From: Paenibacillus sp. BIC5C1
Lineage (GTDB): Bacteria; Bacillota; Bacilli; Paenibacillales; Paenibacillaceae
Direction of reading: 5' to 3'
DNA length: 64,000 bases
Assembly: GCF_032399705.1 (NCBI RefSeq)
Contig: NZ_CP135922.1
Coordinates: 1,984,001-2,048,000, forward strand
The notes beneath the pieces were generated by a model that was not told the origin of the DNA, made no database searches, and worked only from the letters and a program-made list of their open reading frames with translations. The position numbers were made by a program, and so were the translations under genes. Positions 31,881 through 41,405 of this stretch are shown here, piece by piece (within the stretch, counting starts at the first letter, position 1; each line of letters opens with the position of its first letter).

Positions 31881-32261
31881 GTGGTTATTAACGTTCTATA
31901 GCTAATGTTCGTCATTAATAATAGTAGCTCCGTGGGCCTGTTTATTCGTAAACTGCTCTGGAGCTTTTTCATGTTTATGCAACAGTAGTAGATGGTGAGG
32001 GTGATAAAAGAAGTATAAGTGCTTAAACGACAGAGAACAGAATAGAGTGGATAGAAAGATATTATGAAAAGGTGAAAATAAAAGATTGACATGATACATT
32101 TTGTATCATAGAGTAAAAGTATGAATACATATCGTATCTAAAGATTGTCGAAAGTACATCATCCATATTACCTATTCCTGTATGGGAATATTAGTGGATA
32201 TTGATATAAAGAGCTATACCAACTGCATGCTTATTTTAATTTTACAGAGGAGAGGCTGCCA
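31881..32261 (+). promoter_or_regulatory. Lasso operon promoter region with palindromic operator filling the spacer
   Basis: No gene is seen in these 381 bp. TTGACA (32086-32091) and TAGAGT (32109-32114) are 17 bp apart, a good sigma-A promoter. The spacer is itself a perfect inverted repeat, TGATACA-TTT-TGTATCA (32092-32108), extended by one more A/T pair on each side. A protein bound there would block RNA polymerase. A related partial motif, ATACATATCGTATCT, lies at about 32125-32139. The leader to the first gene would be about 140 nt. A weak AGCTCC/GGAGCT hairpin near 31925-31965 followed by TTTTTC may terminate the UMF1 gene. Confidence 0.7.
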
Positions 32262-33530
32262 TTGGTAGATGTTCATGGTAACGGACTTGTCTTACTACTA
32301 TGTGTACCTCGCAGTGGAAGTTCGCTATCCACCGTGATGCTGCAAAATCACAGCCGTGTATTTGCCACACAGGAGATGTGGTTTCTGATGAATCTTGTAG
32401 ATTTGCAGAAGGCTGATTCCCGCCCCTATGGTGGAAGTGCAATCATCCGTCAGTTTTACAGCGCTATGGTATCAGACGAAGGTTTTGAGAAGGCGTGCAG
32501 AAGCTTTGCTCTTGAAATCTATAACGGATTTCTGGAGGGGAGCGGGGCAGACTTCATCGTAGATAAATCTCCTCGTTACTATTATATGCTGGAATGGCTT
32601 GATCTCCTGTTTCCACAGTCCAAGCGCATTCATCTCCAGCGTAACCCCCTTGCCATAGCTGCTTCCTACAAAAAGGTAAATCGCCATACAGGAGAAGGAT
32701 TCGAACTGATTCGCAGCTTGCAGAGTCCGAACCTTAATATGAAAGCAGTTGATCTCACACTGGGCATGCTCCGTTTGAACGATTATTTTGCGGACAAACA
32801 CACGAATGCCTATGAAGTTCAGTACGAACAACTTGTCTCCAACCCTCGGGACGAAATGGAAAAGTTATGCGGTTTTCTTGGCATCGGATATGAAGAGGGA
32901 ATAGAGCAATATGGACGCTTTGTGGACAGTACAAAGTCCAATATGTTCTATAGTATGGGTGTCGGTGATCCGTTTCTATCTTCACATCAGGAATCTCATA
33001 AGGATTCTGTTAACAACTGGAAAAAAACACTAGATCCACAGGAAGTTGAATTCTATTGCCGGGTGATAGGCGCAGATATGTTTCATCGGATGGGATACAG
33101 TGAACAGCTCGAAGAAGCCGAGCAATGGACGGGTGTACGTTACGAAGCTGGCCCGGATGAGGAAGTCATATCCAAGCTAACGCGTCAATTCTCCGAAGCA
33201 ACGGGCAGCAGCTGGAAGCAAGGTTACCGGATGCAGCCTGTAGACCTAGTGAGCAATACTCCAGATGAAAACAGGGATAATCAGGCAGCGAATGAACCCG
33301 ATGCAATTGACCCGACACTGGCCGCACTGGCAACGATCAGGCAGTTGGAAGCCGCATTACGTGCAGCCGATAATCGGCTGGAGCGAGGGTACAATGAGCG
33401 GGAACGATTGAAGGTACAGCTTGCGTCTGCTCACAGCAAGATTCAGCGTATCAAATCCTTGATTCCGTTTGGTAACCAGATAAGCGCCTGGGCTTCACAG
33501 CGCAAGATACTCCGGGGAGGAAAGTCATGA
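32262..33530 (+). CDS. Sulfotransferase, first gene of the lasso peptide operon
   Basis: 422 residues, TTG start with GAGGAGAGG 7 bp upstream. The N-terminus LLLCVPRSGSSLSTVML (PRSGSS at residues 16-21) is the PAPS 5'-phosphosulfate loop of sulfotransferases. KRIHLQRNPLAIAAS near residue 125 matches the 3'-phosphate-binding Arg/Ser element, and QYEQLVSNPRDEMEKLCGFLGI is the usual family ending. A C-terminal extension (about residues 300-410) adds a charged coiled coil. The last 4 bp overlap the start of the lasso cyclase gene, so the enzyme is coupled to the pathway. Likely role: transfer of sulfate from PAPS to the peptide, possibly to Tyr; this is inference. A PAPS-making kinase gene lies just beyond the operon. 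Confidence 0.85.
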   Translation: MVDVHGNGLVLLLCVPRSGSSLSTVMLQNHSRVFATQEMWFLMNLVDLQKADSRPYGGSAIIRQFYSAMVSDEGFEKACRSFALEIYNGFLEGSGADFIVDKSPRYYYMLEWLDLLFPQSKRIHLQRNPLAIAASYKKVNRHTGEGFELIRSLQSPNLNMKAVDLTLGMLRLNDYFADKHTNAYEVQYEQLVSNPRDEMEKLCGFLGIGYEEGIEQYGRFVDSTKSNMFYSMGVGDPFLSSHQESHKDSVNNWKKTLDPQEVEFYCRVIGADMFHRMGYSEQLEEAEQWTGVRYEAGPDEEVISKLTRQFSEATGSSWKQGYRMQPVDLVSNTPDENRDNQAANEPDAIDPTLAALATIRQLEAALRAADNRLERGYNERERLKVQLASAHSKIQRIKSLIPFGNQISAWASQRKILRGGKS

Positions 33531-35458
33531 GCGCTATAGCAGGAATTGTTCACACCGATGGTCAGCAAGCGTTATGGGAGGACAGTTGGCGTTTATATGC
33601 CAGTCTGGGCCACGTTCCGGCGGATACAACGGGGGTGTGGAAAGGTAATGAAGCTTTCCTGAGTTGCCATGCCCAGTGGATTACGCCCGAGTCAGTCAGT
33701 GAGCAATTGCCCTTATATGATGAAATGAGTGGTCTGACCATCACGGCGGATGCCATTTTGGATAATCGGGAGCAGCTGGCAGATCAACTGTCCATTTCGA
33801 GGGCGGAGTTAGCCGGATTGTCGGACAGTGAACTGATCCTGCGAGCCTACCAGCGATGGGATGAACATATGGCAGAGAAACTGCTTGGCGATTTCGCCTT
33901 CGCAATCTGGGATGAGCGCAAGCGCAGACTATTTGCTGCCAGAGATATTACAGGCATGAGATCGTTTTATTTTCGGCATGATGGTGAGCGGTTTGCCTTC
34001 TGTACCTTAATGAATCCGTTACTGCAATTGGAGGGTGTACATAAAGAACTGAATGAGATCTGGCTGTCCGAATTTCTTGCCATTCCCGATATGCATGACT
34101 CGGCAGATATCCATTCTACCGTCTATCGCGGAGTGAGTCAGCTGCCTCCTGCTCATACGCTTAGTTTCAGGGATGGCAGGTTGGAACAGAAACAATATCA
34201 TCGCTGGGATGAAGTGGAGCCTCTAAAACTCAAGTCCGACGGGGAATATGTAGAAGCATTTCGTGAGGTGTTCGGTCAAGCTGTTGGATCACGATTGCGA
34301 ACGCATCGACAGGTGGCTGCTGCTTTAAGCGGAGGGCTGGATTCCGGGGCTGTGGTTGGATATGCCTCAGGAACACTGCGCAGTCAAGGGAAAACGTTAA
34401 ATGCGTACAGCTATGTCCCGGTGTCTGACTTTACGGATTACACATCGAAAACACTGTTAGCAGATGAGCGACCGTTTATCCAGTCTACGGTTAATCATGT
34501 CGGCAATATCACGGAGAATTATCTTGATTTTGAGGGTAGAAGCCCACTTAGTGAAGTGGACACTTGGCTTGATATTATGGAAATGCCTTATAAATACTTT
34601 GAGAACTCATTCTGGATTCGTGGTTTTTATGAAAAGGCGAGCCAGCAGGATGCAGGCATTCTATTGACTGGAGCTCGGGGCAACTTCACGGTCTCCTGGG
34701 GCCCAGCACTTGATTATTACGCCAGTTTGCTAAAAAGCGGACGCTGGTTCAGGTGGCTCCGGGAAATGCAGCAGTACAGTGAACGAACCGGGATGAAATT
34801 CTCACGAATTGCCAAAATTACAGGCCGTAAAGCGTACCCGGAATTGTTCAAATCGATGTCCAAGGGCGCTGCACAAGCCGCATCTGTGCAATTAATCCAT
34901 CCGGAGTTTGCTAGCCGAACAGGTGTATTGGAACGGCTCAAATCCGTTATCGTTCTGCAAGGCGGTGCTCAGGCAGACGCTCTCAAAGTAAGGGCAGAGA
35001 AATTCAACAACCTGGCCATTGCGAACAAAAATGGTGCTGTTGCAACCAAATGCTCTCTTCGTTATCGGGCGTGGGAGCGTGACCCTACGAGTGATGCCAG
35101 AGTGATTCGTTTCTGTCTGTCCGTACCGATTGAACAATATGTTAATCAAGGTACGGATCGTGCCTTGATAAGGCGGGCTACCTCACCTGAGTTGCCTGAC
35201 AAAGTGAGATTAAACCAGCGAGTACGCGGTGTTCAGCCCGCGGATTGGTTGCATCGCATGATTCCCAATTGGGGCGATTTTACTGCCGAATTGCGTGCGT
35301 TATGTTCTGACAGCCGGGTCGCGGGCATATTGAACACAGAGCGAATCAAGTCCGCACTTGCGAATTTTCCGAATCCTCGGCCTGAGCTCGCTTCACACCC
35401 GGACTTGCGGTTGATGATGCATAGTCTGATCGTGTATCGATTTATCCGAAAGTTCTGA
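33527..35458 (+). CDS. Lasso peptide cyclase (asparagine synthetase B-like, protein C)
   Basis: 643 residues. An N-terminal Ntn-hydrolase-like domain (1-210) is followed by an asparagine synthetase domain with the ATP pyrophosphatase loop ALSGGLDSG at about 264-272. The N-terminus reads MSAIAG rather than MCGIAG, so the glutaminase nucleophile Cys2 is replaced and no ammonia can be made from glutamine. This fits lasso cyclases, which adenylate an Asp or Glu side chain and close it on the free N-terminus of the core. It overlaps the sulfotransferase gene by 4 bp and is followed by the precursor gene. Similar to PadeC of the paeninodin cluster by position and type. Confidence 0.92.
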   Translation: MSAIAGIVHTDGQQALWEDSWRLYASLGHVPADTTGVWKGNEAFLSCHAQWITPESVSEQLPLYDEMSGLTITADAILDNREQLADQLSISRAELAGLSDSELILRAYQRWDEHMAEKLLGDFAFAIWDERKRRLFAARDITGMRSFYFRHDGERFAFCTLMNPLLQLEGVHKELNEIWLSEFLAIPDMHDSADIHSTVYRGVSQLPPAHTLSFRDGRLEQKQYHRWDEVEPLKLKSDGEYVEAFREVFGQAVGSRLRTHRQVAAALSGGLDSGAVVGYASGTLRSQGKTLNAYSYVPVSDFTDYTSKTLLADERPFIQSTVNHVGNITENYLDFEGRSPLSEVDTWLDIMEMPYKYFENSFWIRGFYEKASQQDAGILLTGARGNFTVSWGPALDYYASLLKSGRWFRWLREMQQYSERTGMKFSRIAKITGRKAYPELFKSMSKGAAQAASVQLIHPEFASRTGVLERLKSVIVLQGGAQADALKVRAEKFNNLAIANKNGAVATKCSLRYRAWERDPTSDARVIRFCLSVPIEQYVNQGTDRALIRRATSPELPDKVRLNQRVRGVQPADWLHRMIPNWGDFTAELRALCSDSRVAGILNTERIKSALANFPNPRPELASHPDLRLMMHSLIVYRFIRKF

Positions 35459-35533
35459 TGCAGCTAATGGGTGTAGCGATATGAGCCGGGAAAGATCCAT
35501 TAATCAGTTTACTCATGAGAGGAGGTGAACACG

Positions 35534-35671
35534 ATGCAAATGGAAAAAAAGGAATGGCAAGCACCAGCACTGGAAGTATTGGAAGTGAACCAAACGATGG
35601 CAGGAGTAGGTTACAAACAGATCGACTGGGTTACTGTCCACGATGCTGATCTTTATGATCCAACTTCCTAA
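35534..35671 (+). CDS. Lasso peptide precursor (paeninodin-like, protein A)
   Basis: 45 residues, with AGGAGGTG 6 bp before ATG. The leader (1-22) contains the Bacillota leader signature WQAPALEVLEV recognised by B1 and ends NQTM, with the conserved Thr at position -2. The predicted core is residues 23-45 (23 aa): AGVGYKQID would form a nine-residue Ala1-Asp9 macrolactam ring, and WVTVHDADLYDPTS the threaded tail. Length, A-G-x-G start, Asp9 and C-terminal Ser23 all match paeninodin, whose last Ser is phosphorylated by an HprK-like kinase. Tyr19 sits among Asp15, Asp17 and Asp20. The gene is too short for most ORF callers and has its own terminator. Confidence 0.93.
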   Translation: MQMEKKEWQAPALEVLEVNQTMAGVGYKQIDWVTVHDADLYDPTS

Positions 35672-35705
35672 GTTGTTTAGTTTTAACATGTGCCATCATA
35701 CTTAG

Positions 35706-35781
35706 AAGGGCGGAAAGGGCAATAATCCAACTTTTCGCCTCCGCCCTTATATTGAGCAGTGCGAATATAAGGGCTTTTTTT
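35706..35781 (+). terminator. Terminator with mutually exclusive alternative stem between precursor and kinase genes
   Basis: GCCCTTATATT (35743-35753) pairs with AATATAAGGGC (35764-35774), followed by seven T: a strong terminator. Its left arm also belongs to a second stem, AAGGGCGGA (35706-35714) with TCCGCCCTT (35740-35748). The two helices share GCCCTT and cannot coexist, so the upstream stem would act as an anti-terminator. Either way the arrangement should keep precursor mRNA well above that of the enzymes downstream. Confidence 0.8.
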
Positions 35782-35816
35782 ACTTACATGCAGAATTGCG
35801 AAGGAGGAGTCTTTCA

Positions 35817-36764
35817 TTGTTGCCTGTGCAGTATGAAGCGTATGGCTTGCGTTGGTTGAGCCAATTCCCAATGCCTGAACTCCAAATCGTACAGAGCGGT
35901 ACAGATTCTCTAACTGCCTATACGGACGTACACATTGAAATAGCTGATTTGGCGGCACAGTGGAAAGAGTGGGATGTGGGGAGCGATAACTTTGTATCCC
36001 GAAATGGCAGTCTTTTTTTTCGTATCGAAGATGTGGGCCTGTTTCTCATGGAACAAGGACGCCGTATCGTAGTATCCCCTCAAACGGGAGCAGATGCCAA
36101 AAAGGTCAGATTGTTTGTGCTGGGTACATGTATGGCCGTCATTATGATGCAGCGCGGCATTCTTCCACTCCACGGAAGTGCGGTAGTCATTGATGGTTGG
36201 GCTTATGCATTTGTTGGACACTCGGGTGCAGGCAAATCCACTTTATCAGCTGCACTTGCTTCACGCGGCTTTCCACTCTTAACGGATGATGTCGTGGCAC
36301 TGACATGGGATGCAGGAGGAAGAGCAATCGTATCACCGGGTTATCCGCAGCAAAAGTTATGGCAGCCTAGTCTGGACGGATTCGGCATGAAGGAACAGGA
36401 TTACGCAACGGTTCATGCGGAAATTACGAAATACGCGATACCGGTTCAGCATTATTTTCATGATCAACCTGTTCCGCTTGCCGCTATTTTTGAACTTGAT
36501 CCGAAGCCGGAAGAGATGCTGAAACCTGTACAACTGAAGGACGTTGCGGGATTGGAACGCCTTCACATGCTGTGCTCTCATACATTTCGCAGTGGACTTG
36601 TTTCCAGGCAGGGTCTGGCACAGTGGCTGTTCGAGACGGTCTCGCGGCTGTCCGCCGGTATTGAAGTTTATAGAATCACGAGGTCAGGCTCTGATTTTAC
36701 CGCATTTGAGATGGCTGACCGGATTACAGAACATGCACGCAAAGGAGTGTATACAGGACAATGA
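35817..36764 (+). CDS. HprK-like lasso peptide kinase (protein K)
   Basis: 315 residues from TTG 35817, 9 bp after AAGGAGG; an earlier in-frame TTG precedes the ribosome site. The central part is an HPr kinase/phosphorylase-like P-loop domain: GHSGAGKSTLSAAL near residue 133 and LTDDVVALTWD near 160. The upstream LPLHGSAVVIDGWAYAF is typical of the group. PadeK of the paeninodin cluster is of this type and phosphorylates the C-terminal Ser of the precursor, and the precursor here also ends in Ser, so this is the likely substrate. The stop overlaps the start of B1 by 4 bp. Confidence 0.9.
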   Translation: MLPVQYEAYGLRWLSQFPMPELQIVQSGTDSLTAYTDVHIEIADLAAQWKEWDVGSDNFVSRNGSLFFRIEDVGLFLMEQGRRIVVSPQTGADAKKVRLFVLGTCMAVIMMQRGILPLHGSAVVIDGWAYAFVGHSGAGKSTLSAALASRGFPLLTDDVVALTWDAGGRAIVSPGYPQQKLWQPSLDGFGMKEQDYATVHAEITKYAIPVQHYFHDQPVPLAAIFELDPKPEEMLKPVQLKDVAGLERLHMLCSHTFRSGLVSRQGLAQWLFETVSRLSAGIEVYRITRSGSDFTAFEMADRITEHARKGVYTGQ

Positions 36765-37060
36765 CAGCAACGAAGCCAATGAATGGGGAAGACCGTGTGT
36801 TGCGGAAGGAAGGCAATCTTGTCAGTGACATGGGTGGGGAAAAAGTCATGATGAGCATCCACAACGGTAAGTATTATAATCTGGGCAGCACGGGTGGACG
36901 AATCTGGGATCTGATCAGTCAAGAACGAACATTGACCGAATTGGTTGAAGTGTTAGCTTCAGAATATGAGATAGGCCCAGACATATGCCGTGAGCAGGTT
37001 GTGCAATTTCTAGAGCATTTGACGCATGAAGGATTAATTGACGTTACCCGCGGAGAGTAG
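36761..37060 (+). CDS. PqqD-like RiPP recognition protein (lasso B1)
   Basis: 99 residues with a PqqD/RRE winged-helix fold: the beta-rich N-terminal part VLRKEGNLVSDMGGEKVMM, the NGKYYNLGSTGGRIWDLI motif near residue 40, and helices ending HLTHEGLIDV. In Bacillota the lasso B protein is split; B1 binds the leader and presents the precursor to the B2 peptidase and to tailoring enzymes. Start overlaps the kinase gene by 4 bp; B2 follows after 3 bp. Confidence 0.92.
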   Translation: MTATKPMNGEDRVLRKEGNLVSDMGGEKVMMSIHNGKYYNLGSTGGRIWDLISQERTLTELVEVLASEYEIGPDICREQVVQFLEHLTHEGLIDVTRGE

Positions 37061-37063
37061 ACC

Positions 37064-37546
37064 ATGTTGCGAAAAATAAAAGCATATCGTTCATTGCCGC
37101 GTGAAATTCGTGGATTGGTATGGGAAGCTTATGTCCACCTTGGATGGGCACGAATACTTAAGGCGATGCCTTTTGCCAGGATTGCCCCTAGTCTCGGTAC
37201 ACCCATGTACGAAACGCCGGTGACGGGACTCAATCGTAGTGATGTGACGACAATACGAAATATTTCTAAAGCTATTCTTATTGCCAGCAGGTATACATTA
37301 TGGGAAAGTCGTTGCCTTGTCATGGCAATCGCAGCGATGAAGATGCTGGAACGCCGTAAAGTGGAGAGTACTCTATATATGGGTACTGCACGGGATAAAC
37401 AAGGTCAAATGATGGCTCATGCATGGCTGCGAAGTGGGAAATTGATTGTGACTGGAGCAGATACAATGGACCAATATACGGTTGTCGGCGTGTTTGGCAA
37501 GCGTTGTCCTGAGAAGGGAGCTGGGGAGATTGTCTACGATACATGA
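37064..37546 (+). CDS. Transglutaminase-like leader peptidase (lasso B2)
   Basis: 160 residues, the C-terminal half of McjB as a separate protein. The papain-like triad is visible: Cys84 in LWESRCLVMAIAA, His119 in MMAHAWL and Asp133 in VTGAD. It cleaves the precursor after the -2 Thr motif, leaving Ala1 free for cyclisation. It follows B1 by 3 bp and is overlapped at its end by the next gene. All catalytic residues are present. Confidence 0.92.
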   Translation: MLRKIKAYRSLPREIRGLVWEAYVHLGWARILKAMPFARIAPSLGTPMYETPVTGLNRSDVTTIRNISKAILIASRYTLWESRCLVMAIAAMKMLERRKVESTLYMGTARDKQGQMMAHAWLRSGKLIVTGADTMDQYTVVGVFGKRCPEKGAGEIVYDT

Positions 37547-38726
37547 GTGGGAACAATATACAGCGGATTTTCCGCAGGAGCTTAAGCTGATTTTGAGCAT
37601 GATTAAAGGCGATCTAACAGTAATAACCCCTGAGGACGCCCAAATACGAATTAAGGGGATGGACTGGCAGCTCTTTTTGCAGCTTGCCCATCATCATCGA
37701 CTGTACTCTGTTCTCTATCTAAAAATAAAAGAGTTGAATTCAGCGATTATTCCCGCTTTTGTGGTGGAGAACCTGAAGCAGCAATACACAACTAATACGT
37801 TCCGCATGTTACATCTAACAGCCGAGATGGAGCAGGTATGTGGCGCTTTTCGTGAACGAGGCATTCGGAATATTACGCTCAAAGGGCCCACGCTGGCACA
37901 TGATTTATACGGAGATATTTCCTTGCGAACCTCTAAAGATCTGGACATTCTTATTCCCTTTGATGATGTGGAGTTCGCGGAGGAGATTCTTGAATCGCTT
38001 GGTTATGAATCGAAGGAAGGTAAGAGAACACCAACTGTTGCTAGCTGGAAATGGCGGGAACATCATATCTGTTACAAACACCCGGTCAAAAGAACCCAAG
38101 TCGAGATCCATTGGCGGCTTAATCCGGATTCCGGAAGAGAAACCGATTTTGAATTACTGTGGAAACGCAGTCGATTCAGCACCTATACCCAGACGCCTGT
38201 CCGTATGCTGGAAAGGGAGGATCTGTGGGCATATTTGGTGACGCACGGCGCAAGACACGGGTGGTTCAGACTGCGTTGGTTACTGGATATCGACCAGATG
38301 ATTCGCAGTATGCCACTGGATGTCAAAAAAGTGGAGCGACGCCTGAAAGCAGAAGGCAGATTATCTATCGGTTCACAAGCTCTTCATCTGGCTTCGGTAT
38401 TACTGGACACCCCTTTGGATGCCAATTATCTTGCTTTGTTGTCTTCTCATGAACGTGTGGGAGAGAAATTAGCCAGACGCGGCGTCGTGTTCATGAATGA
38501 GATGATTGAGAGCCCGGCAGATGTAAAGAGTTATCGTTCCTATCTGTTCGCACTGCGAAGCACAAGGCAGAAGCTGTTTTTCTTTATTGAACGTTTGTAT
38601 CCGAGTACCTGGGATGTAGACCAACTACCGCTTCCGCGTTCACTGCATTTTTTGTATTTTCCGTTACGTCCGTTTCTCTGGTTCTGGCGGCGAATCAAAA
38701 GGAACACGATGACGGAGAGGGGATAA
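37530..38726 (+). CDS. Nucleotidyltransferase family protein in the lasso operon (protein N)
   Basis: About 398 residues from TTG 37530, with AGAAGGGAG 9 bp upstream; it overlaps B2 by 17 bp. The core shows the nucleotidyltransferase signature GPTLAHDLYGDISLRTSKDLDILIP near residues 115-145, with the metal-binding D-x-D in DLDIL. QVEIHWRL near 190 supplies the third acidic position. The protein belongs to the uncharacterised Nucleotidyltransf_5-like group often found in lasso clusters with a kinase. In the Bacillus pseudomycoides cluster the equivalent gene was linked to further decoration of the phosphorylated peptide, as far as I recall. Exact reaction unknown here. Confidence 0.8.
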   Translation: MSTIHEWEQYTADFPQELKLILSMIKGDLTVITPEDAQIRIKGMDWQLFLQLAHHHRLYSVLYLKIKELNSAIIPAFVVENLKQQYTTNTFRMLHLTAEMEQVCGAFRERGIRNITLKGPTLAHDLYGDISLRTSKDLDILIPFDDVEFAEEILESLGYESKEGKRTPTVASWKWREHHICYKHPVKRTQVEIHWRLNPDSGRETDFELLWKRSRFSTYTQTPVRMLEREDLWAYLVTHGARHGWFRLRWLLDIDQMIRSMPLDVKKVERRLKAEGRLSIGSQALHLASVLLDTPLDANYLALLSSHERVGEKLARRGVVFMNEMIESPADVKSYRSYLFALRSTRQKLFFFIERLYPSTWDVDQLPLPRSLHFLYFPLRPFLWFWRRIKRNTMTERG

Positions 38727-38729
38727 CGT

Positions 38730-40634
38730 ATGATTTCGGAACTGCAATTTTTTATGCGAAAGCTGCATCGTGTAACGGGCCCAGTCTTATATTGGAATCT
38801 GTTGGGCATGATCTGCATTAGTCTGATGGAAGGGATCGGCATATATATGCTCGTTCCGATGTTAAGTCTTATTGGTATTTTTGAAATGGGTTCTACAGGT
38901 CTGCACTTACCCTGGATATCAGAATTTTTAAATCGTTTTCCGGAAAATGGCCGGCTGCTGCTGGTGCTGCTGACCTTTGTCCTCATTGTCTCTGGACAGG
39001 CGTGGCTACAACGTCTTCAGACGATTCGTAACACTCGAATTCAGCAGCAATTTGTTCGAACGCTGCGCATGGAAACCTATCGTGCCATCATTATGGCGCA
39101 GTGGTCTTTTTTTCTCCAAAAACGAAAATCCGACTTTAATCATATATTAACGACCGAACTTGCCCGTGTCAGTCAGGGCACGAATATTATGCTGCAAATG
39201 GCGGCTTCCTTGATCTTCACCGGCATTCAAATCGGCCTGGCCTTCTGGTTGTCTGCCAAGTTAACTGCCCTTGTCCTGGTCTGCGGATTGGTATTGTTTA
39301 TTGTCTTGAGAAAATTCGTGAAAAGGGCAAAACAAATTGGGGATCAGACGTCGGAATATTCTCAGAGCTATTATAACGGTATTACAGAGCACTTTAATGG
39401 AATCAAGGATATTAAGAGCAATATGCTCGAAAAATCACATATTAGCTGGTTTGAACGTATGTGTGGGCGAATTGAACGTAACGTGATTCAGTTCAGCCAG
39501 TTGAACAGCGGCACACAATTGATTCATCGAATATCCGCGGCAGTCATTATTGCTGCTTTTATCTATTTATCTCTACATGTACTCGCTGTCCCTCCGGCAA
39601 GTTTATTGCTCATTATTCTGATCTTTTCACGGTTGTGGCCACGATTCACTTCTATTCAATCCAATCTGGAGTATATGAGTTCGATGCTGCCCGCGTTTCA
39701 GATTGTGAGAGAGTTACAGACAGAAACCGAGAAAAGCCGTGAGATTAGCGAAAAAACGGTTAATACTGGTGAACCATATGATGAGGAGTTAACGGTTCCC
39801 GGTCCTCGTTCGGTCAGAATGAAGGCCCAGGCCATGCTGAATGAGCAGCAGACAGCTAGCGATATGCTGCCCATTGAACCCCTGGTGCTAAAGGAGTCTA
39901 TCGAGTGTCAGCAAGTGAATTATCGCTATGAAGGCAGCGATACCTACTCGTTATACGAAGCGTATGCATCCATCCCTGCAAAAGGCATGACGGCCATTGT
40001 AGGCAAGTCAGGAGCAGGGAAGAGCACGATGATCGATCTGATTATGGGACTCATACGTCCGGAGAGTGGTCAGATTTTGGTGGATGGGGTGCCGTTAACC
40101 GAGAATCGATTGTTAGCCTGGAGAAGTTCAATCGGATATGTCTCTCAGGACCCTTTTCTGTTCCATACAAGTATTCGTGAAAATTTGCGCCTGGTTGATC
40201 CAAATGCCAGTGAGGAACAGATGTGGCAGGCATTACAGTTCTCATCGTCTGCAGCGTTTGTCCGCAAACTTCCGCAAGGACTGGATACCATTATCGGTGA
40301 TCGGGGCATCCGCCTGTCCGGTGGTGAACGTCAGCGTTTGGTGCTTGCCCGCGCTATGCTTCGGAACCCTTCTGTATTGGTATTGGATGAGGCGACAAGT
40401 GCGCTGGATAGTGAGAACGAACAACATATTCATGAGGCTCTTGAACACCTGAAAGGGCATGTGACTGTTATTGTTATCGCCCACCGATTATCCACCATTC
40501 GAACAGCGGATCGAGTGATTGTATTGGATGAAGGCCGGGTGATCCAACAAGGGGGTTATCAACAGTTGTCTACTGATCCGGTTGGCACATTCAGCAAACT
40601 GTTGAACATGCAGGCGGGTGTCGTGGGTCAATGA
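38730..40634 (+). CDS. ABC transporter with fused membrane and ATPase domains (lasso exporter D)
   Basis: 634 residues. Six membrane helices lie within residues 20-310; there is no N-terminal C39 peptidase domain, as expected for lasso exporters. After a long linker (about 330-385) comes the ATPase: Walker A GKSGAGKST near 424, signature LSGGERQ near 528, Walker B VLVLDEATSALD and the H-loop VIAHRLST. It exports the mature peptide and usually gives self-immunity. GGAGAGGGG lies upstream; the gene starts 3 bp after N. It is the last gene of the operon. Confidence 0.92.
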   Translation: MISELQFFMRKLHRVTGPVLYWNLLGMICISLMEGIGIYMLVPMLSLIGIFEMGSTGLHLPWISEFLNRFPENGRLLLVLLTFVLIVSGQAWLQRLQTIRNTRIQQQFVRTLRMETYRAIIMAQWSFFLQKRKSDFNHILTTELARVSQGTNIMLQMAASLIFTGIQIGLAFWLSAKLTALVLVCGLVLFIVLRKFVKRAKQIGDQTSEYSQSYYNGITEHFNGIKDIKSNMLEKSHISWFERMCGRIERNVIQFSQLNSGTQLIHRISAAVIIAAFIYLSLHVLAVPPASLLLIILIFSRLWPRFTSIQSNLEYMSSMLPAFQIVRELQTETEKSREISEKTVNTGEPYDEELTVPGPRSVRMKAQAMLNEQQTASDMLPIEPLVLKESIECQQVNYRYEGSDTYSLYEAYASIPAKGMTAIVGKSGAGKSTMIDLIMGLIRPESGQILVDGVPLTENRLLAWRSSIGYVSQDPFLFHTSIRENLRLVDPNASEEQMWQALQFSSSAAFVRKLPQGLDTIIGDRGIRLSGGERQRLVLARAMLRNPSVLVLDEATSALDSENEQHIHEALEHLKGHVTVIVIAHRLSTIRTADRVIVLDEGRVIQQGGYQQLSTDPVGTFSKLLNMQAGVVGQ

Positions 40635-40665
40635 CACTTCTCCGTGAATTCGTGAAAAAACAAAG

Positions 40666-40696
40666 CAAAAAGGCGCGCCATTAGAGGCAGCGCCTT
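40666..40696 (-). terminator. Terminator of cysC
   Basis: AAGGCGC (40670-40676) pairs with GCGCCTT (40690-40696). Only the minus-strand side has a T tract (TTTTTG), so it mainly serves cysC. The lasso operon on the plus strand has no other clear terminator here. Confidence 0.65.
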
Positions 40697-40766
40697 TGAT
40701 CTGTATGTACGGCAAAAGAAAAGGAAGGGAAGAGGAATAGTAATTCAACATGGTTATCTTTTTCGT

Positions 40767-41405
40767 CTAGTGAACAATGGCATTGCTAACAGGCTGCGGC
40801 AGTTGAAAAGCACCAACACGTTCCAGATGTTGCACAATTTCATGCACGGCTTCTTCAATGGACAGCTCTTCCGTATCAATGATCAGTGTAGGATCTTCTG
40901 GAATATCATAAGGGGCAGAGATTCCTGTGAAATGTGGAATGGCACCGCTGCGGGCCTTTTTGTAAAGCCCCTTCGGATCACGGCGTTCGCATTCTTCGAT
41001 CGAACAACGGACATAAATTTCAATGAAATCATCAGCCTCAAAGAGCTGTTTAACCATATTCCGGTCTTGTGCATCTGGCGAGATAAAGGCGGAAAGAACA
41101 AATAACCCGGCATCTACCATCAACTTGGATACTTCACCAATCCGGCGCAGATTTTCTTGCCGATCCTCGACCGTGAACCCAAGATCCCGATTCAGTCCAT
41201 GACGTACGTTATCCCCATCAAGTACGTAACAATGAACCCCTTTTTCGTACAGATACTGCTCCAGGGCAAATGCAAGCGAGGACTTTCCTGCGCCGGATAG
41301 GCCGGTGAACCATAAGGCACGACTGTGATGACCGTTATGTTTCTCCCTGTCCTGCCTGTTTAAGCTGGATTGCTGCCAGGTAATGTTACGTTCTTCCTTT
41401 GACAT
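40767..41405 (-). CDS. cysC: Adenylylsulfate (APS) kinase
   Basis: 212 residues. N-terminal basic segment, Walker [14 protein letters not shown] at about residues 33-46, [16 protein letters not shown] (APS-binding) near 60-75, [11 protein letters not shown] and a C-terminal [22 protein letters not shown]. It phosphorylates APS to PAPS with ATP. GAGGCGG precedes the ATG by about 7 bp. No sulfate adenylyltransferase or PAPS reductase gene is adjacent. The gene converges on the lasso operon, whose first gene is a PAPS-using sulfotransferase, so a dedicated donor supply is plausible. Confidence 0.93.

What the first reader, a model, noticed from the sequence alone, without database searches (positions are those of the whole stretch)
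32262..41405. Sulfotransferase and APS kinase framing a lasso operon: a possible sulfated lasso peptide
The first operon gene is a PAPS-type sulfotransferase coupled to the cyclase gene by a 4-bp overlap, and cysC, which makes PAPS, lies just beyond the last gene. The core has Tyr19 surrounded by Asp15, Asp17 and Asp20, the acidic setting favoured for tyrosine sulfation, plus Tyr5. Kinase, nucleotidyltransferase and sulfotransferase together would give a doubly or triply tailored lasso peptide. I know of no proven sulfated lasso peptide.
Basis: inference. Interest (0 to 1): 0.85.

Follow-up and report, generated by a model that had tools for sequence, protein, structure and literature searches.

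The report
Sulfotransferase arm of a lasso cluster
A soil bacterium's lasso-peptide gene cluster carries an intact sulfate-transferring enzyme beside the genome's one clear gene for making its sulfate donor, so the peptide is probably sulfated, a modification suspected but not proven for lasso peptides.

Summary
In a Paenibacillus taichungensis-like genome, an intact PAPS sulfotransferase (ST) opens a paeninodin-family lasso operon (ST-C-A-K-B1-B2-N-D; 4-bp overlap with the cyclase). The genome's one strong APS kinase gene (cysC) lies beyond the last gene, on the other strand. That such Firmicutes clusters can carry an ST gene is already in print (Zhu 2016, seen through two later papers); I found no sulfated product.

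New here: all 103 ST-bearing genomes of 394 carry cysC, against 155 of 291 others. cysC lies in the fetched stretch at 83 of 105 ST-adjacent cyclase genes, against 2 of 33 ST-less ones. cysH and sat lie elsewhere, and CysH looks able to use APS, so PAPS is probably made for sulfation.

The Tyr19 claim is weaker. Tyr19 is invariant in 48 close relatives and Tyr5 is not. But three distinct ST-adjacent cores lack any Tyr, residue -1 is not acidic, and the feature shared by all 66 distinct ST-adjacent cores is a Ser/Thr three residues after the ring Asp (Thr12). Structure search ranks tyrosylprotein sulfotransferases first; sequence search ranks CurM and NoeE types. Sulfation of the product is likely; the acceptor is open.

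The parts
32086..32114 (+). sigma-70-like promoter (TTGACA-17-TAGAGT) whose spacer holds the palindrome TGATACATTTTGTATCA (32092-32108), a probable operator
   Evidence: Promoter scan (19 sites found against 14.8 expected, so the match alone is weak). 47 of 48 near-clade upstream regions keep a TGATAC..GTATCA palindrome, 44 of 48 with TTGACA joined to full half-sites. One other exact site in the genome.
32262..33530 (+). PAPS sulfotransferase (ST), 422 aa, with a C-terminal extension of about 130 aa that includes a long predicted helix (351-400)
33527..35458 (+). C, lasso macrolactam cyclase (asparagine synthase type)
   Evidence: Pfam GATase_7 and Asn_synthase; NCBIfam lass_lactam_cya 376 bits, below its cut-off of 525
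35534..35671 (+). A, precursor peptide, 45 aa: leader 35534-35599, core 35600-35668
   Evidence: NCBIfam NF033524 paeninodin family 62.7 bits
35633..35635 (+). core Thr12, candidate sulfate acceptor (ring Asp9 + 3)
   Evidence: Ser/Thr at this place in 66 of 66 distinct ST-adjacent cores (65 by script, one read by eye) and 7 of 27 distinct ST-less ones
35654..35656 (+). core Tyr19, candidate sulfate acceptor
   Evidence: Tyr in 52 of 52 near-clade precursors; D-x-D-x-Y in 56 of 66 distinct ST-adjacent cores (one by eye), D-x-D-x-T in 7
35707..35780 (+). two hairpins and a T-run between A and K, attenuator-like
   Evidence: fold of the A-K gap, -32.6 kcal/mol; the role is inference, and the terminator scan does not list it
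35796..36764 (+). K, HPr-kinase-like kinase, expected to phosphorylate the C-terminal Ser
   Evidence: Hpr_kinase_C 1.8e-6, below Pfam's cut-off; role by analogy with PadeK (PMC9266682, passages)
36761..37060 (+). B1, leader-binding RRE (PqqD-like)
   Evidence: NCBIfam NF033536 124.5 bits, over cut-off
37064..37546 (+). B2, leader peptidase
   Evidence: NCBIfam NF033537 103.7 bits, over cut-off
37482..38726 (+). N, NTP_transf_5 nucleotidyltransferase-like protein (PsmN type)
   Evidence: PF14907 2.4e-61
38730..40634 (+). D, ABC exporter
   Evidence: Pfam ABC_membrane and ABC_tran
40767..41405 (-). cysC, APS kinase, makes PAPS; the one strong copy in the genome
   Evidence: PF01583 1.9e-64; own genome: one match by protein and two by Pfam, the second only 24.6 bits, just over the cut-off of 21.1 and partial, in a protein that scores about as well as KTI12

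Best explanation
This is the sulfation branch of a paeninodin-type lasso pathway. CysC, fed with APS by the distant sat gene, makes PAPS, and the cluster's ST transfers its sulfuryl group to a hydroxyl of the lasso precursor or peptide. K and N decorate the C-terminal Ser (phosphate, then a PsmN-like addition), B1/B2/C cleave and thread, D exports. The acceptor most likely lies in the loop or tail of the core: Tyr19 (about 40%) or Thr12 (about 25%). Shown: the genes, conserved catalytic residues, the recurrent ST-cysC pairing, the core features that go with ST. Inferred: that PAPS serves this ST, that the peptide is the substrate, the site, and the order of steps.
For: ST lies directly upstream of 105 examined cyclase genes, one of these beside a truncated ST, and its distances follow the cyclase's (r 0.87 over 48 dereplicated loci). 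103 of 103 ST genomes have cysC against 155 of 291 without ST (z 4.8 stratified by approximate genus). cysC is in the stretch at 83 of 105 ST-adjacent cyclases, 11 of them on the operon strand, against 2 of 33 ST-less; in L142 it lies 17 bp before ST. In this genome PF00685 and PF13469 find this ST alone and there is one strong APS kinase. cysH and sat lie together at 6.2 Mb without cysC. CysH has CC and CxxC, passes the APS-reductase model TIGR02055 and fails the PAPS-reductase equivalog TIGR02057. R17, E38, K102 and S135 are invariant in 49 homologues. 3 of 10 cysC stretches displayed from elsewhere have another sulfotransferase gene beside cysC.
Against: No product, mass or assay. CysH also passes two models named phosphoadenylyl-sulfate reductase (NF002537, TIGR00434), and such enzymes can take PAPS too (recalled for B. 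subtilis). 22 of 105 ST-adjacent cyclases have no cysC in the stretch, among them all 12 loci of one ST group, though those genomes have one elsewhere. Four ST-less clusters of one genus keep a nearby cysC (G376, G378; G381, G390). Sulfotransfer_2 and Stf0 families were not sought in the genome. ST relatives include carbohydrate (NoeE) and polyketide (CurM) enzymes. Only 4 supported independent pairs exist, so no covariation reaches significance.
Confidence: 0.72

Rival explanations
1. The ST sulfates Tyr19 and works like a tyrosylprotein sulfotransferase.
Against: G012, G096 and one of two G314 precursors have no Tyr though an ST is adjacent; L142's putative precursor has none either. Six ST-less loci of another architecture also have D-x-D-V-Y, and G091, G376, G378, G381 keep Tyr19 without ST. 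Residue -1 is Leu/Met/Ile in 25 of 25 near-clade cores. By count along the alignment TPST2 R101 falls on W40. Tyr may be a steric plug.
Confidence: 0.4
2. The ST sulfates Ser/Thr12, an aliphatic hydroxyl in the lasso loop (another special case).
For: Ser/Thr at ring Asp+3 in 66 of 66 distinct ST-adjacent cores against 7 of 27 ST-less, the 7 being from lineages that are sisters of ST-bearing ones. G012, the one ST row among 10 ST-less rows in its clade, has Thr where its four called AGPG-type sisters have Gln, and no Tyr where three of those four have one. The best PDB sequence match is CurM, which sulfates an aliphatic hydroxyl (recalled).
Against: Kept in clusters without ST (G091, G086, G376, G378, G381). 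Ser/Thr sulfation of peptides is rare (recalled). The position could be structural. Only 4 independent pairs, not significant.
Confidence: 0.25
3. The ST sulfates the sugar or phosphate that K and N build on the C-terminal Ser.
For: NoeE, a carbohydrate sulfotransferase (recalled), is the only NCBIfam match (1.2e-39, 136 bits against a cut-off of 500); the annotated noeE of NGR234 gives 103 bits by tblastn, TPSTs at most 39 bits by phmmer (different programs). N is present at 103 of 105 ST-adjacent cyclases against 13 of 33 ST-less. It would explain cores without Tyr.
Against: Does not explain the core motifs that go with ST. 13 of 33 ST-less loci have N too. PsmN's chemistry is itself uncertain (PMC9266682, passages).
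Confidence: 0.15
4. The ST is part of the locus but acts on another molecule, such as a cell-surface glycan.
For: Some other cysC genes in the family lie among polysaccharide-type genes (L208, L209, L217; read by eye).
Against: Overlaps the cyclase gene, diverges in step with the cyclase, and goes with core type.
Confidence: 0.12

Closest known systems
Sulfotransferase- and nucleotidyltransferase-bearing paeninodin-type clusters (P. polymyxa CR1; Zhu et al. 2016, not readable here, cited in PMC8498205 and PMC11381294)
   Same: ST at the start of the cluster, N between B2 and D, paeninodin-family precursor
   Different: the passages seen do not mention cysC or a core feature that goes with ST
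Paeninodin (P. dendritiformis)
   Same: precursor family, C-terminal Ser, HPr-kinase-like K, split B1/B2
   Different: no ST in the passages read; the four called AGPG-type ST-less cores here have Gln where ST-adjacent cores have Thr/Ser12
Pseudomycoidin (B. pseudomycoides)
   Same: K and an NTP_transf_5-type N (family of PsmN recalled) acting on a C-terminal Ser
   Different: phosphorylated and glycosylated; no ST mentioned in the passages read
RaxX/RaxST sulfated-tyrosine RiPP (Xanthomonas)
   Same: PAPS sulfotransferase encoded with a ribosomal peptide and its exporter
   Different: linear peptide (recalled); PAPS genes are housekeeping there (PMC6637879, passages), linked cysC here; RaxST was not compared by sequence
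CurM and TPST sulfotransferases
   Same: fold and catalytic Arg/Glu/Lys
   Different: about 20% identity; an acid-reading Arg of TPST not conserved at the aligned place; extra C-terminal helical region

Membership tests
Paeninodin-family lasso cluster | Precursor of the PadeA family with W..P leader motif and Thr at -2 | tested here: met
   NF033524 62.7 bits over cut-off 27; motif read in the sequence
Paeninodin-family lasso cluster | C, split B1/B2, K and exporter genes | tested here: met
   B1 and B2 over NCBIfam cut-offs, C below its NCBIfam cut-off and K below its Pfam cut-off
Paeninodin-family lasso cluster | Threaded product | not testable with these tools
   needs MS and NMR
PAPS sulfotransferase (Sulfotransfer_3) | 5'-PSB and 3'-PB motifs and catalytic Arg/Glu/Lys | tested here: met
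   P16-S21, E38, K102, R127-P129 and S135 invariant in 49 sequences
Tyrosylprotein sulfotransferase | TPST fold | tested here: met
Tyrosylprotein sulfotransferase | Preferred substrate context: acid at -1 of the Tyr (strong in human TPSTs, not absolute) | tested here: not met
   -1 is Leu/Met/Ile in 25 of 25 near-clade cores; preference from PMC5562738 passages
Tyrosylprotein sulfotransferase | Sulfates Tyr | not testable with these tools
   needs an assay
Sulfated RiPP (sulfatyrotide) | Sulfated product | not testable with these tools
   needs MS
APS kinase dedicated to sulfation | Linked to ST and not to assimilation genes | tested here: met
   exclusive use of its PAPS by ST was not testable

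The most novel reading that the evidence does not exclude
The enzyme is not a tyrosine sulfotransferase. It sulfates the Ser/Thr that stands three residues after the ring-closing Asp, in the lasso loop, giving the first Ser/Thr-sulfated lasso peptide, with the acceptor hydroxyl and a dedicated APS kinase gained and kept together with the enzyme.
Probability: 0.25. Interest if true: 0.75.

Novelty: new variant of a known kind. Interest (0 to 1): 0.55.

Why it matters
Sulfate would be a new tailoring of lasso peptides, beside phosphate and sugar, and the pairing with cysC gives a genomic signature for finding more. It makes an open remark of 2016 directly testable and names two point mutants (Y19F, T12A) that decide the site. 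A PAPS enzyme acting on a knotted or pre-knotted peptide would be a useful tool, and the biological role of paeninodins is unknown (PMC13381572, passages).

Tried and rejected
Tyr5 as acceptor: rejected as a general site (Phe in 4 and Trp in 2 of 52 near-clade precursors). cysC as part of a sulfate-assimilation locus: rejected for this genome (cysH and sat at 6.2 Mb, cysC at 2.02 Mb) and not seen in 20 chosen stretches around other cysC genes (tblastn with this genome's CysH and Sat). Those 20 include two beside ST-less lasso clusters (L214, L215) and three from ST-bearing genomes (L203, L216, L222). A second APS kinase at 1.78 Mb: set aside (24.6 bits against a cut-off of 21.1, partial, KTI12 scoring slightly better). 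Finding a regulator through the operator: led nowhere; the only other exact site lies between an epimerase gene and a cupin gene. A different sulfotransferase in ST-less loci: seven stretches were read by eye (L143 with its ST remnant and six ST-less) and none was seen, but no domain search was made there. Sign tests on independent pairs were not significant.

Rows dropped or mended by eye: one search read the G084 core as empty through a pattern error; its core was added by eye, so 65 + 1 of 66. G104's precursor was missed there, but its core equals one already counted. Of 33 ST-less cyclase genes, 7 gave no strict precursor call (6 with a WxxL leader, one with none found); those six have Tyr at ring Asp+3 and D-x-D-V-Y. 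Fifteen distinct cores from second cyclases or non-adjacent ST loci were tabulated apart and left out of both groups: 3 of the 15 have Ser/Thr+3. Three cyclases were dropped from the tree as short and the rest thinned from 135 to 83. Cyclase hits beyond the list were not fetched, so the 33 ST-less cyclase genes are a part of those in 241 cyclase-bearing genomes and not a random sample. One duplicate ST locus (G307:C35) was not fetched. Genus labels were set from handle-number ranges. The motif check of 108 ST proteins passed 100; G097 is truncated, the other 7 were not inspected one by one. One stretch (L103) ends with its contig, so missing N and cysC there mean nothing; G312 and G314 have a cysC on the same contig outside the stretch.
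Full report
What is there. The window lies in a single-contig 7.08 Mb genome, at this locus nearly identical to Paenibacillus taichungensis (ST 99% identical to strain NC1). The operon is ST-C-A-K-B1-B2-N-D, with overlaps (4 bp, 4 bp, and 65 bp for B2/N) or gaps of 3 bp, except 75 bp before and 124 bp after the precursor gene. The precursor is of the paeninodin family. cysC faces the operon 132 bp beyond D, on the other strand.

Is the ST real and part of the system. It matches Sulfotransfer_3 and Sulfotransfer_1 over their cut-offs. R17, E38 and K102 align with the catalytic R78, E99 and K158 of TPST2 (alignment; residue roles from a passage of PMC5562738) and are invariant among 49 homologues. 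An ST relative is found in 103 of 394 genomes of the family, 68 of 75 in the genus, and the cyclase in 241 of 394. At 105 fetched cyclase genes ST sits directly upstream, in G097 as a truncated remnant. ST and cyclase distances correlate at 0.87 over 48 dereplicated loci, 0 of 2000 permutations as high; shared descent alone also gives such a correlation.

Is cysC linked on purpose. In the genus 72 of 75 genomes have cysC. In the family 103 of 103 ST genomes have it, against 155 of 291 without ST. The fetched stretches hold cysC at 83 of 105 ST-adjacent cyclases, 72 on the opposite strand and 11 on the operon strand, 22 without, and at 2 of 33 ST-less ones. At 65% ST identity there are 14 ST groups: in 9 every locus has linked cysC, in one (32 loci) 23 do, while a 12-locus group and three single loci (one of them the truncated G097) have none. 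In L142 cysC lies 17 bp before ST; in L102 it follows D on the same strand (confirmed as APS kinase and ST). Of 20 chosen stretches around other cysC genes none holds cysH or sat; of the 10 that I displayed, 3 (L210, L211, L213) have another sulfotransferase gene beside cysC. In this genome cysH and sat are adjacent at 6.2 Mb. CysH has CC and CxxC, scores 254.3 on the APS-reductase model TIGR02055 (cut-off 235.3) and 226.8 on the PAPS-reductase equivalog TIGR02057 (cut-off 254.2), but it also passes NF002537 and TIGR00434, both named phosphoadenylyl-sulfate reductase. So assimilation need not consume PAPS, but that it does not is unproven. PF00685 and PF13469 find only this ST in the genome; other sulfotransferase families were not sought. 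Against a dedicated role: four ST-less clusters of one genus keep a nearby cysC (G376, G378; G381, G390).

What does the core say. Among 48 near-clade loci with 52 precursors (25 distinct cores), Tyr19 is invariant and Tyr5 is not. Over all ST-adjacent loci there are 66 distinct cores (one read by eye): Ser/Thr at ring Asp+3 in 66, D-x-D-x-Y in 56, D-x-D-x-T in 7, a Tyr anywhere in 63. Among 27 distinct ST-less cores, Ser/Thr+3 is in 7, all in lineages that are sisters of ST-bearing ones on the tree (G091, G086, G376, G378, G381). Cores without any Tyr beside an ST that passes the motif check occur in G012, G096 and one of two G314 precursors; L142's short putative precursor has none either but matches no family model. 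On the cyclase tree of 83 rows the G012 row with ST lies among 10 ST-less rows (branch support 99): it has Thr+3 where its four called AGPG-type sisters have Gln, and no Tyr where three of those four have one; the five sisters of the AST type have other cores with Tyr. Only 4 supported independent pairs exist, so cysC (same way 2.1, opposite 0.0), Ser/Thr+3 (1.7, 0.0) and D-x-D-x-Y (0.5, 0.1) are directions, not proofs. In tandem operons such as G035 and G316 the ST-adjacent precursor has the D-x-D-I-Y tail and the other a different core.

Literature. PMC8498205 (passages) states that Zhu et al. 2016 saw a putative ST gene at the start of some Firmicutes lasso clusters. PMC11381294 (passages) repeats this for P. 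polymyxa CR1 and reports ST and nucleotidyltransferase genes in Paenibacillus sp. APC 4171. In PMC9266682, PMC13352647 and PMC13381572 the word sulfotransferase does not occur in the text held. Searches showed no sulfated lasso peptide in the listings and passages seen; the library holds only open-licence papers and later searches failed, so absence from print is not shown. The original 2016 paper was not readable.

Verdict.

Noticed in passing
window 32086-32114: Operon promoter with the palindrome TGATACA-TTT-TGTATCA in its spacer, conserved in the near clade while the flanks drift; one other exact site in the genome, between an epimerase gene and a cupin gene. Regulator unknown.
   Followed up: partly
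L143 2836-3279, L144, L145 (G097, G091, G086): Probable recent ST loss: truncated ST in G097, none in G091 and G086; the core is that of ST-bearing relatives in the first two, with Tyr19 to Phe in G086.
   Followed up: partly
L163 5515-5877, L166 5432-5872: In ST-less clusters with four precursors and a nearby cysC, an ORF of 120-146 aa of unknown kind stands directly upstream of the cyclase, in the ST place.
   Followed up: no
L049, L058, L059, L068: Two tandem precursor genes; one core ends ..DLYGTS instead of ..DLYDPTS.
   Followed up: no
L146, L147, L149, L150, L151, L172: Different architecture N-K-B1-B2-D-C with WxxL leaders and ..VDGK.VD.DVYDS cores, without ST or cysC in the stretch; in L146 and L149 the gene before N looks by eye like a UDP-sugar dehydrogenase.
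   Followed up: partly
L128, L134 (G123, G117): cysC copies linked to ST clusters hold a stop inside the search alignment, possibly decaying.
   Followed up: no
window 35707-35780: Two strong hairpins and a T-run after the precursor gene, perhaps a partial terminator.
   Followed up: partly
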